Assembly (NCBI GenBank): GCA_009668945.1
Contig: SBEH01000004.1
Location: forward strand, 107,830 to 157,505
Direction of reading: 5' to 3'
From: Actinomycetota bacterium
GTDB lineage: Bacteria; Actinomycetota; Coriobacteriia; Anaerosomatales; Anaerosomataceae
Length of the DNA stretch: 49,676 nt
The position numbers were made by a program, and so were the translations under genes. Positions 47,895-49,646 of the stretch are shown here, in pieces. The notes beneath the pieces are model-generated. The model was not told the DNA's origin and ran no database searches. It saw only the letters and a program-made list of their open reading frames with translations. Position 1 is the first letter of the stretch. Every line of letters begins with the position of its first letter.

Positions 47895-49646
47895 GTGGCT
47901 GAACCATCGGCAGGGCGGGACACCCGTCGTCTGCGTATAGTCCGCTGGCTTCGGGATCATGAAGCGCGGCTGGTTGCCGTGCTGGCCGTCACCGTCGTAG
48001 CGCTCACGTTCGGCGGATATGCCTTCAACCCGGGAGTGCGGGCGCGGGTGAGCCTTCCCTCGGCGATCTACCACTCGCTCGCGAGTCTCGCTGGGGGTGT
48101 CGAGTGGGACGAGTACGGGTGGCAGGGCAACCTGTCCACGTGGCTCGACCTGCTTCTCGTCGCGTGGGTTGCGGTCAAGGCAGCCATGCTCGCGTTCGCC
48201 AACGCAATCGATGGCGCCTGGGCGCGGCGTCGCCGCGGTCACACGATACTGTGCGGGATCGGTCACTACGGTCGGATCCTGAGCGAGGCCCTCCTTCGTA
48301 GTGGTAGCAAGCTAACGATCATCGAGCCCGACAGAGCGAACCCCGATGCATTGCTTCTCCGCGCGCAGGGCGCGTGTGTGTTGATCGGGGACCCGACCGG
48401 TGCCGAGGCGCTCGATGCTGCTCGTGCGGATCGCGCCACCCGCGTAATCTGCATGATGGACAGCGACGACGCGAACGCAGTGGTGGCGCGCGAGGTCGCC
48501 CGTCTCGTTCCCGCCGGGACCCCGGCATGCTTCATTCGCAACGAGAGTCCGTCGACATGGGCTTCAATCGACTCGGCCAGGGACAATGCGGTGGTGCCGT
48601 TCTCTGTCCTATCCAGCGCCTCCAGCAACGTGTTCCTCGCAATAGACCTGGAGTCGCTGAAGGGCGATGTCGACATCGCCGTATTCGGAACGGGAGTGGC
48701 CTCGGAATCGGTGATCGTGCGGGCGGCGAAGGTCTGGCAGGCGATCGCCGTGCGACGCGGTGGTGCCGGCGTCTTGCGGTTGCACGTCGTCGGCCCCGAT
48801 GGCGGATCGTTCGTCTCCCGGGTGCTTCCGCTTCGCTACGACGGCATCGATGCCCTGTGCGAGCTCGTAGGCTCCGATGTCGACTCGTGGGACGTTGCCG
48901 AGCACGTTGCGGCCTGCGCTCTGGAGGGTGCGGAGAGTCTGGCCGCTGCAGTCGTCGCAACCGGCCGGGACACCGCCAACGTCCAACTCGCACTCGCTCT
49001 GGCCCGCCGCGCTCCCGACACGATTCGCATCGTCGCGGTGACCGACACCAGACCTGGTGTTCTCGAGCTTGTCGCGTCTGCGGATTCCGGGCTTGCCGCA
49101 AGGCTGGATATCGTCGACGTCAGCAGTGCGCTACGCGATTCCGGGACCGTACTCGGAGGGACTCGCGAGGAGATGGCGCGTCTCGCCCACGAGGACTGGC
49201 TGCGCACGCAGTTGAGGCACGGAGCGGAGCTGGATTCCCGTGGCCCGATGCAGCACTGGAGTTCGCTGCCGGAGTCGTTCAAGCAATCGAATCGTGAGCA
49301 GATGCGTGCGGTCTTTGACGCCATGGTGCCCCGACTCGCATCCACCGTGGTGCCGCTCGCTGACTGGGACGCCCGGCCGTTCGAGTTCCGCCGCGGCGAG
49401 GTGGAGGCCCTGTCTCGGCTGGAGCACGAGCGCTGGTGTGCCGAGCGCACAGCTGCCGGGTGGCGCCTGGATGCCTCGCTTGCCGAGCGTGACGCCCGGA
49501 CGAAGCGCACGCCGTGGCTCGTGTCCTACGACGATCTGCCGGACGTGCAGAAGGACAACGACCGCGATGCCGTGACTCGGATCCCGGTCACGCTCGCACG
49601 CGCAGGGTTCCGGCTTCAGCGTAATGGCGACTCGGCGGGGGGATAG
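47895..49646 (+). CDS. Membrane TrkA-N protein fused to a bacterial RyR domain
   Basis: 583 residues from GTG 47895 (GGGGAGG 5-6 nt upstream). Two transmembrane helices (about 25-45 and 82-102) flank a short loop (AIYHSLASLAGGVE) that lacks the K+ filter TVGYGD. A TrkA-N Rossmann domain follows with GIGHYG (121-126) and an acidic residue closing strand 2 (E144), suited to NAD(H). A second nucleotide-binding-like half covers about 255-440. The C-terminus (about 504-575) is a ryanodine-receptor-type domain: LEHERWCAERTAAGW, then TPWLVSYDDLPDVQKDNDRDAV. Such TrkA/RyR proteins are predicted nucleotide-sensing membrane proteins. The ligand and physiological role are unknown. Confidence 0.88.
   Translation: MAEPSAGRDTRRLRIVRWLRDHEARLVAVLAVTVVALTFGGYAFNPGVRARVSLPSAIYHSLASLAGGVEWDEYGWQGNLSTWLDLLLVAWVAVKAAMLAFANAIDGAWARRRRGHTILCGIGHYGRILSEALLRSGSKLTIIEPDRANPDALLLRAQGACVLIGDPTGAEALDAARADRATRVICMMDSDDANAVVAREVARLVPAGTPACFIRNESPSTWASIDSARDNAVVPFSVLSSASSNVFLAIDLESLKGDVDIAVFGTGVASESVIVRAAKVWQAIAVRRGGAGVLRLHVVGPDGGSFVSRVLPLRYDGIDALCELVGSDVDSWDVAEHVAACALEGAESLAAAVVATGRDTANVQLALALARRAPDTIRIVAVTDTRPGVLELVASADSGLAARLDIVDVSSALRDSGTVLGGTREEMARLAHEDWLRTQLRHGAELDSRGPMQHWSSLPESFKQSNREQMRAVFDAMVPRLASTVVPLADWDARPFEFRRGEVEALSRLEHERWCAERTAAGWRLDASLAERDARTKRTPWLVSYDDLPDVQKDNDRDAVTRIPVTLARAGFRLQRNGDSAGG

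What the first reader, a model, noticed from the sequence alone, without database searches (positions are those of the whole stretch)
47895..49646. TrkA-N/RyR membrane protein with a filter-less pore region
Two helices, a Rossmann sensor and a C-terminal RyR domain are arranged like a ligand-gated K+ channel, but the loop between the helices lacks the K+ selectivity sequence. RyR domains in bacteria are predicted to bind nucleotides in conflict or signalling systems, so this could be a membrane effector triggered by a nucleotide.
Basis: partly seen in the sequence, partly recalled or inferred. Interest (0 to 1): 0.55.

Follow-up and report, generated by a model that had tools for sequence, protein, structure and literature searches.

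The report
Bacterial nucleotide-gated pore protein candidate
A bacterial membrane protein joins a channel-like pore that lacks the potassium filter to the nucleotide-binding module of animal ryanodine receptors; many of its relatives sit near genes that make or sense immune nucleotide signals, so it may be a pore opened by such a signal, although its own neighbours lie beyond the end of the assembly.

Summary
Window 47895-49646 encodes a 583-aa protein: two membrane helices with a pore helix but no K+ filter, two Rossmann (RCK-like) domains, and a C-terminal RyR module. No K+ filter follows the pore helix in any of 51 rows compared. The contig ends 30 bp after the gene, so its partners cannot be read.

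Among 51 loci of relatives, the gene lies beside a small SLOG-fold gene in 19, has TIR genes in the stretch read in 13 (0 of 20 control regions), and RelA/SpoT-RyR genes in 4. DUF4062 lies within 10 kb in 4 of 9 channel genomes checked (about 0.1 expected; post hoc). Two 2026 preprints report that DUF4062 is a TIR-like NADase of phage defence and that phage RyR domains bind or cleave cyclic ADP-ribose signals. The window keeps four of five RyDEP residues (H100 is Thr).

Best reading: a gating-ring membrane effector opened by a nucleotide signal. Architecture is strong; mechanism is inferred. The window's assembly has no DUF4062 gene and no other RyR gene.

The parts
47895..49646 (+). whole gene: 2TM-pore-helix / double Rossmann / tandem RyR protein, 583 aa, GTG start
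47964..48026 (+). first membrane helix (residues 24-44)
   Evidence: AF2 helix 6-44; 19-residue hydropathy peak 2.19
48054..48089 (+). pore helix (residues 54-65)
   Evidence: aligned with the family's YxxLQLF segment
48090..48119 (+). loop where a K+ channel has its filter (residues 66-75); no TVGYG-like sequence
48120..48194 (+). second membrane helix (residues 76-100)
   Evidence: AF2 helix 76-112; hydropathy peak 2.04
48234..48647 (+). first Rossmann / RCK domain (TrkA_N, residues 114-251)
   Evidence: Pfam TrkA_N; RCK structures Z about 17-18, rmsd about 2
48663..49124 (+). second Rossmann domain (residues about 257-410)
   Evidence: alignments to GsuK, KtrA, TrkA and the DMI1/CASTOR gating rings run through it
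49155..49364 (+). RyR repeat 1 (residues 421-490), not recognised by Pfam; carries Q469 (aligned with RyDEP Q54)
49380..49628 (+). RyR repeat 2 (residues 496-578): H511, W514, T539, D556 align with RyDEP H75, W78, H100, D117

Best explanation
It is a membrane effector built like an RCK-gated channel. Two membrane helices and a pore loop without a K+ filter would form a multimeric, weakly selective pore. Two Rossmann domains form the gating ring, and a tandem RyR (Repeat12-like) module on each subunit binds a small nucleotide signal. In relatives the signal would come from a neighbouring or distant enzyme (TIR or DUF4062 NADase giving ADP-ribose-type molecules, or a RelA/SpoT-family synthetase), with SLOG-fold proteins as a second sensor. 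Binding would open the pore and collapse the membrane potential, most likely as an infection-triggered shutdown. Shown by computation: architecture, missing filter, tandem RyR fold, kept ligand residues, gene context of relatives. Inferred: oligomer, conduction, ligand identity, role in defence, and that the window's copy works as its relatives do.
For: Fold: GsuK 4gx0 Z 20.7 (346 residues, rmsd 15.6 with the membrane part) and 4gx5 Z 20.5 (281, rmsd 4.1); DMI1 ring Z 18.3 (312, 3.5), CASTOR rings 16.9-17.0; human RyR3 Repeat12 Z 13.9 (151, 3.0). Ligand residues: positions of RyDEP Q54, H75, W78 and D117 are unchanged in the window; PMC13232231 reports that RyDEP binds and cleaves 2'/3'cADPR and that 6 of 8 tested homologues bind them (text parts 1-2 of 6 read). 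Context: a SLOG-fold gene beside the channel gene in 19 of 51 loci, 18 downstream on the same strand, gaps -112 to +179 bp, 0 of 20 control regions; the model of one (L040) matches YpsA (Z 18.4, 156 residues, rmsd 2.9) and, more modestly, ThsA (9.8, 129, 3.9), the TRPM2 chanzyme (9.2, 149, 4.0) and ThsA SLOG with 3'cADPR (8.2, 124, 3.2). TIR neighbours in 13 of 51 loci against 0 of 20 control regions, p 0.014. DUF4062 within 10 kb in 4 of 9 channel genomes checked, 0.10 expected, P about 5e-6, post hoc. RelA/SpoT-RyR genes in 4 of 51 loci with D..G.R and E.QVR motifs present. In a same-family genome the design is split: a SLATT-family 2TM gene overlapping a RyR-only gene, beside DUF4062-STAND. 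The nearest relative (47%) follows a DUF4062-NACHT gene and a DnaJ gene on one strand. Patchy: 42 of 150 genomes of a Micromonospora genome's family, 4 of 240 and 3 of 246 in two other phyla at E 1e-50, the centre genomes included. PADLOC: one RelA-RyR neighbour (L034) matches the candidate family PDC-S33 (6.7e-14, in its RelA part) and one TIR-WD40 neighbour (L144) matches TIR models including ThsB.
Against: The window's own partner genes are off the contig. Its assembly (99.26% complete) has no DUF4062 gene, one RelA/SpoT gene on another contig, and one clear TIR gene on another contig. T539 replaces the phosphate-contacting H100. The window pair branches long (1.78) and has lost the family's LQLF/ARF pore signature. 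TIR enrichment within Micromonosporaceae alone is not significant (6 of 32 against 0 of 20, p 0.07), and the TIR model was seeded from channel loci. The DUF4062 count was made after I had seen DUF4062 beside several of these genes; 5 of the 9 genomes do not fit (G742, G573, G309, G452, window). PADLOC has no match to the window protein, the SLOG gene or the two DUF4062 proteins scanned. FxSxx-COOH peptide-system genes, not defence genes by name, are the neighbours in a cluster of 10 loci (NCBIfam-checked only for L130 and L042). No test of conduction or binding was possible.
Confidence: 0.48

Rival explanations
1. A physiological cation channel: gated by ordinary adenine nucleotides or NAD(H) like GsuK or TrkA rings, serving ion homeostasis or stress, not defence.
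For: GsuK was crystallised with ADP and NAD and TrkA with ATP analogues (titles). RyR3 Repeat12 was crystallised with ATP or AMP-PCP (titles). The window's upstream neighbours look metabolic, and several Micromonosporaceae loci have metabolic-looking neighbours.
Against: No K+ filter. Patchy among relatives. Loci of relatives hold SLOG, TIR, DUF4062 and RelA-RyR genes.
Confidence: 0.25
2. Not a channel: a two-helix membrane anchor that carries a nucleotide-sensing ring and signals to another protein, for example the SLOG partner.
For: The pore loop lacks any filter I know, shows by eye no conserved acidic residue, and the membrane part is modelled at about 62-79 pLDDT.
Against: A pore helix and a conserved family pore-loop signature (YxxLQLFxLxS...P.L..ARFxAP) are kept in most rows other than the window pair, which suggests that the loop itself matters.
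Confidence: 0.17
3. The RyR module is an enzyme like RyDEP that destroys the signal, so the protein resets signalling at the membrane.
For: Both members of RyDEP's catalytic pair are kept in the window (H511, D556).
Against: The aspartate is missing in 18 of 19 SLOG-partnered relatives, and the histidine in seven rows (L043, L044, L130, L131, L132, L142, L146); the paper reports that the other tested homologues did not cleave despite conservation; H100 is lost here.
Confidence: 0.06
4. A decaying or stranded gene of no current function at an assembly break.
For: Long branch shared with one relative; at a contig end.
Against: Full-length open frame with all domains, codon use not unusual (divergence 0.062 per codon; other genes over 150 aa average 0.086), 47% identity with G139 over 561 columns.
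Confidence: 0.04

Closest known systems
GsuK (PDB 4gx0-4gx5), two-TM K+ channel with tandem RCK domains
   Same: 2TM, pore helix, two Rossmann RCK-like domains in one chain; best structural match (Z 20.7)
   Different: no TVGYG-type filter here; carries a tandem RyR module that is not part of GsuK
Animal ryanodine receptor Repeat12 domain (PDB 9l91, 6uhe)
   Same: tandem repeat matched over 151 residues, Z 13.9; Q/H/W/D positions kept
   Different: small bacterial 2TM protein with RCK ring, not a giant Ca2+ release channel; phosphate His is Thr
Phage RyDEP (DyoEdafos gp78), glycosidase or, in homologues, sponge for 2'/3'cADPR (PMC13232231)
   Same: same Pfam family (PF02026), four of five compared residues kept
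   Different: RyDEP is a small evasion protein of 138 aa; here the module is fused to a membrane gating ring in a bacterial genome
DUF4062 NADases / Swarozyc (PMC13174449)
   Same: DUF4062 genes near the channel gene in some relatives
   Different: Swarozyc acts by NAD+ depletion itself; the words TrkA, RyR and channel do not occur in its main text
Thoeris (TIR + SLOG-domain effector ThsA)
   Same: TIR genes near 13 of 51 relatives; SLOG partner resembles the ThsA SLOG modestly
   Different: effector here is a membrane pore candidate with RyR sensor; SLOG and TIR neighbours co-occur in only 1 of 51 loci
SLATT 2TM effectors of SMODS/SLOG systems
   Same: two-helix membrane effector logic; in L036 a SLATT gene is paired with a RyR-only gene
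   Different: window protein has no SLATT match; it has a pore helix and RCK ring
TRPM2 (ADP-ribose-activated channel; SLOG and NUDIX-like domains recalled)
   Same: bacterial loci hold a channel, a SLOG-fold partner and, in two loci, a NUDIX gene
   Different: no sign of a related pore; parts are separate genes; ligand unknown

Membership tests
2TM/P-loop RCK-gated K+ channels (GsuK, MthK) | two membrane helices with a pore helix between | tested here: met
   (membrane part at moderate confidence)
2TM/P-loop RCK-gated K+ channels (GsuK, MthK) | K+ selectivity filter T-V/I-G-Y/F-G after the pore helix | tested here: not met
   0 of 51 rows with the region, by eye after the pattern scan
2TM/P-loop RCK-gated K+ channels (GsuK, MthK) | tandem RCK/Rossmann gating ring | tested here: met
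   fold match to GsuK, TrkA, DMI1, CASTOR rings
2TM/P-loop RCK-gated K+ channels (GsuK, MthK) | tetramer that conducts ions | not testable with these tools
   only monomer prediction is offered
CASTOR/POLLUX (DMI1) channels | gating-ring fold | tested here: met
   Z 16.9-18.3, rmsd 3.5-4.0, 301-320 residues
CASTOR/POLLUX (DMI1) channels | ADSGNHA-type filter (recalled) and the family's Pfam domains | tested here: not met
   motif absent from the pore region; Pfam lists only TrkA_N and RyR at E up to 1
RyR domain family PF02026 | match over the curated cut-off | tested here: met
   42.9 bits against 27.4
RyDEP-type nucleotide-binding RyR domains | residues Q54, H75, W78, H100, D117 | tested here: inconclusive
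   four kept, H100 is T539
RyDEP-type nucleotide-binding RyR domains | binding or cleavage of 2'/3'cADPR | not testable with these tools
   needs purified protein
Thoeris / TIR-SLOG systems | TIR gene in the same operon as the effector | tested here: inconclusive
   no TIR seen upstream in the window; downstream off the contig; TIR elsewhere in the genome
Swarozyc (DUF4062) | DUF4062 protein | tested here: not met
   none in the window's assembled genome; present near some relatives
SLATT 2TM effectors | SLATT Pfam match | tested here: not met
   no SLATT match to the window protein

The most novel reading that the evidence does not exclude
A bacterial counterpart of the ADP-ribose-gated and ryanodine-receptor channels: a filter-less RCK-ring pore whose tandem RyR module is opened by NAD-derived signals made by TIR or DUF4062 NADases (or, in the Ser/Thr-at-H100 group that includes the window, by a different nucleotide, perhaps from a RelA/SpoT-family synthetase), tuned by SLOG and NUDIX partners, and acting as a membrane-depolarising executioner in phage defence. 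The joint presence of RyR, SLOG and NUDIX around one channel would tie two separate animal channel-gating modules to bacterial immunity.
Probability: 0.27. Interest if true: 0.85.

Novelty: new variant of a known kind. Interest (0 to 1): 0.55.

Why it matters
If right, it adds an ion-channel-type effector with a defined sensor (RyR Repeat12) to nucleotide-signal immunity, gives a small bacterial model for how Repeat12 binds adenine ligands in animal RyRs, and predicts a testable link between NADase defence genes and membrane depolarisation. The split of the family by ligand residues (mostly His at H100 with Asp lost in SLOG-partnered members; Ser/Thr with Asp kept in the window and several others) makes ligand choice directly testable.

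Tried and rejected
Horizontal origin from composition: GC3 is 0.768 against 0.840 (SD 0.042; 2 of 36 other window genes over 150 aa are lower), but codon-use divergence is ordinary, so I do not claim an island. Synteny: the multicopper oxidase upstream is in 3 of the 40 relatives searched at E 1e-40, and the two best cases have other genes around it and no blastp match to the channel, so the channel gene is an accessory there. Contig continuation: the last 200 bases match nowhere else in the assembly. Mobile carriage: no tblastn match of the whole protein at E 1e-5 in 72,556 plasmid or 50,697 phage records; in viral contigs 3 stretches matched a pattern and none was confirmed. The viral fold library gave nothing at E 0.001 or better. 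Ligand-class idea: D117 is kept in 10 of 11 scored TIR-neighboured loci (2 of 13 not scored) and lost in 18 of 19 SLOG-partnered ones, but this follows the tree, so it is a lead, not independent evidence. NCBIfam gives the window protein only partial TrkA/KefC/K+ channel matches far below their cut-offs. A Nudix-box pattern found 2 of 51 channel loci (L034, L133) and 0 of 20 controls, and missed the Pfam-confirmed NUDIX gene of L123.

Rows dropped before counts: L041 and L045 (near copies of L040), L037 and L038 (same contigs as L035 and L033), and loci with RyR but no channel called (L036, L084, L085, L156-L161). Closely related loci were kept, so the Micromonosporaceae rows are not independent. 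Neighbour genes come from my own simple ORF caller, which missed three anchors that I then forced in. TIR and SLOG models were seeded from channel loci and iterated on channel and control sets together. The 20 control regions are at round coordinates that I chose, in Micromonosporaceae genomes only. The ten genomes were chosen by me after DUF4062 had been seen near some of them; one, G016, has no channel gene and was left out of the 9. Literature: going by the titles and abstract starts shown, searches listed no paper on a TrkA-RyR membrane protein; the lists were capped. The 2015 nucleotide-conflict survey by Burroughs and colleagues, which I recall as treating RyR and SLOG domains in such systems, is not held, so I cannot say what it shows of this architecture.

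Full report
WHAT IS THERE. The gene at 47895-49646 is full length: 583 aa, with TrkA_N and RyR matches over Pfam's cut-offs. An AlphaFold2 model from 12 aligned sequences (mean pLDDT 82.4) shows a first membrane helix, a short pore helix (54-65), a second membrane helix, two Rossmann domains and a helical C-terminus. Structure comparison puts the GsuK channel first (4gx0 Z 20.7, 346 residues, rmsd 15.6 with the membrane part included; 4gx5 Z 20.5, 281 residues, rmsd 4.1), then KtrA (19.2, 262, 3.2), the DMI1 gating ring (18.3, 312, 3.5), MthK (18.0, 214, 14.2), TrkA (17.3, 285, 4.6) and CASTOR rings (16.9-17.0), and, for residues 421-576, the human RyR3 Repeat12 domain (13.9, 151, 3.0) and a bacterial/human RyR chimera (13.9, 150, 2.8).

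First, the RyR part is a tandem of two repeats. Profile comparison of residues 419-492 with 496-580 gives probability 98.5% and E 3.5e-15, while four pairs of a repeat with a Rossmann piece give 1.3% or less, and the two Rossmann pieces with each other 49%. Animal Repeat12 has the same two-repeat design. Second, the loss of the K+ filter is not peculiar to this protein. In the 51 of 53 rows that hold the region, no filter follows the pore helix; most share another pattern, YxxLQLFxLxS...P.L..ARFxAP, which the window and its nearest relative have themselves changed.

FAMILY AND SPREAD. Relatives over the length of the protein: G139 in the same family at 47% identity, then others at about 22-30%, one of them (G013) without the RyR module. 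With the 11-row profile, 7 of 396 genomes of the phylum, the window's own included, gave a long match at about E 1e-129 or better, one of them (G636) cut by a contig end. At E 1e-50 there were 4 of 240 genomes of G654's phylum (Verrucomicrobiota by L039's record title), 3 of 246 of G655's (Planctomycetota by L047's title) and 42 of 150 of G656's family (Micromonosporaceae), each count including the centre genome and some partial matches. The tree pairs the window with G139 on a long branch (length 1.78, support 100/100). No whole-protein match was found in plasmids or phages, and none confirmed in viral contigs.

NEIGHBOURS IN RELATIVES. I took 51 loci with a channel gene and called genes with my own script. 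(a) A 155-238-aa gene (330 aa as called in L042) lies beside it in 19 of 51, 18 downstream on the same strand with overlaps or short gaps and one on the other strand; 0 of 20 control regions have it. Pfam and NCBIfam did not name the two examples scanned, but the model of the L040 one (pLDDT 90) matches the SLOG superfamily: YpsA Z 18.4, DprA about 14, ShosA 13.3, LOG about 12.5, ThsA 9.8, TRPM2 chanzyme with ADP-ribose 9.2, ThsA SLOG with 3'cADPR 8.2; the last three are modest. (b) TIR genes occur in 13 of 51 loci and in 0 of 20 control 20-kb regions (Fisher p 0.014; within Micromonosporaceae 6 of 32, p 0.07); Pfam confirmed TIR in seven proteins of six of these loci (L144, L042; L082, L077 twice, L123, L126), the other seven loci were not scanned. 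(c) A RelA/SpoT-RyR protein of 835-902 aa occurs in 4 of 51 loci, in two phyla: next to the channel in L033 and L080, one gene away in L123, several genes away in L034. Of three scanned by Pfam, all have RelA_SpoT and RyR over the cut-off; the SLOG (LSDAT_prok) match is over the cut-off in L034 and below it in L080 and L123. Motifs D..G.R and E.QVR are in place in all four (their meaning in synthetases is recalled). (d) DUF4062 with AAA/NACHT: within 10 kb in 4 of the 9 channel genomes that I checked (G139 3.0 kb, G097 2.4 kb, G013 4.1 kb, G654 9.9 kb), where chance predicts 0.10 genomes (P about 5e-6, post hoc, because DUF4062 had been seen near some of them first); not near in G742 (11 copies, nearest about 23 kb) or G573 (other contig), and absent from G309, G452 and the window's own assembly. 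(e) A NUDIX gene sits directly upstream in L034 and L123, two phyla, both with a RelA-RyR gene. (f) In G016, of the window's family, the parts are separate genes: a SLATT/DUF4231 two-helix gene overlapping a RyR-only gene by 4 bp, near the genome's single DUF4062 gene. The nearest relative, G139, has DUF4062-NACHT-TPR, then a DnaJ-domain gene (28.9 bits against a cut-off of 27.8), then the channel, on one strand. PADLOC: L034's RelA-RyR protein matches candidate family PDC-S33 and L144's TIR-WD40 protein matches TIR models including ThsB, while the window protein, two SLOG genes and two DUF4062 proteins have no match.

LIGAND RESIDUES. PMC13232231 (parts 1-2 of 6 of the text read, plus passages) reports a phage RyR protein, RyDEP, that binds and cleaves 2'/3'cADPR, with contacts H75, W78, H100 and D117 and mutants that include Q54, and homologues that bind without cleaving. 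I took RyDEP's sequence from its record and aligned it. The window has Q469, H511, W514 and D556 at four of these positions and T539 in place of H100. Ser or Thr there is shared with G139, G097, G309, G452, G573, G636, G639, G742 and G886, with three Micromonosporaceae rows (L043, L130, L131), and with three of the four RelA-linked RyR proteins; it is not a clean branch of the tree. The H75 position is changed in seven Micromonosporaceae rows. Among SLOG-partnered channels 18 of 19 lack the aspartate and 17 of 19 keep H100; among other scored rows 20 of 29 keep the aspartate. This follows the tree and so is only suggestive, but it makes two ligand classes plausible, with the window in the class that may not hold ADP-ribose phosphates in the RyDEP way.

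WHY AN EFFECTOR. PMC13174449 (parts 1-2 of 6 read, plus passages) reports that DUF4062 is a TIR-like NADase that makes ADP-ribose and defends against phages. TRPM2 is activated by Ca2+ and ADP-ribose (start of the abstract of PMC6759353 in the listing). So, around one channel gene, relatives carry enzymes that make, or by family could make, NAD-derived or alarmone signals, and three fold families (RyR, SLOG, NUDIX) whose known members bind or process such molecules. A pore without a K+ filter suits a killing role better than K+ homeostasis. Shown: architecture, fold, residues, neighbourhood. Inferred: oligomer, conduction, ligand, direction of control, defence role.

LIMITS FOR THIS GENE. The contig ends 30 bp after the stop and has no overlap elsewhere in the assembly. 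Upstream genes look ordinary. The genome holds one clear TIR gene (contig 13), a weak second TIR match below the cut-off (contig 4), and one RelA/SpoT gene (contig 22), none linked, and one RyR gene, this one. The window's copy could therefore act with an unlinked or unassembled partner, or have another role.

VERDICT. The domains are known to Pfam as separate families and the neighbours belong to known nucleotide-signal systems, so I file it as a new variant of a known kind, with interest 0.55.

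Noticed in passing
L036 5841-10487 (G016 contig 3): SLATT/DUF4231 two-helix gene overlapping a RyR-only gene by 4 bp, near the genome's only DUF4062-STAND gene: a split form of the same idea in the window's family.
   Followed up: partly
L034 14446-14892 and L123 8814-9380: NUDIX hydrolase genes directly upstream of the channel gene in two phyla, both loci also holding a RelA/SpoT-RyR gene.
   Followed up: partly
L034 14926-16248: Channel homologue without any RyR module (440 aa), in a locus whose RelA/SpoT protein carries a RyR domain.
   Followed up: no
L142 13697-14386, L145 4258-4758, L146 8401-8871: Second, stand-alone RyR genes near the channel gene, in loci that also have TIR proteins; Pfam finds two RyR stretches in the L142 one.
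   Followed up: no
L043, L130, L042, L149: Channel gene near FxSxx-COOH peptide-system genes, including the TIR-like FxsC protein (NCBIfam hits for L130 and L042; the others by sequence cluster).
   Followed up: partly
L077 6907-9123 and L080 4171-6561: Double AAA (Cdc48/ClpB-like) proteins close to the channel gene in two relatives of the same phylum.
   Followed up: no
G000 contig 13, 95710-96069 (L204): TIR domain in a 1048-aa frame in the window's own genome, unlinked to the channel gene.
   Followed up: no
phage records: 150 phage records match a RyR-only query at E 0.001; among the 40 listed most are named hypothetical. A pool of candidate signal sponges or hydrolases.
   Followed up: no
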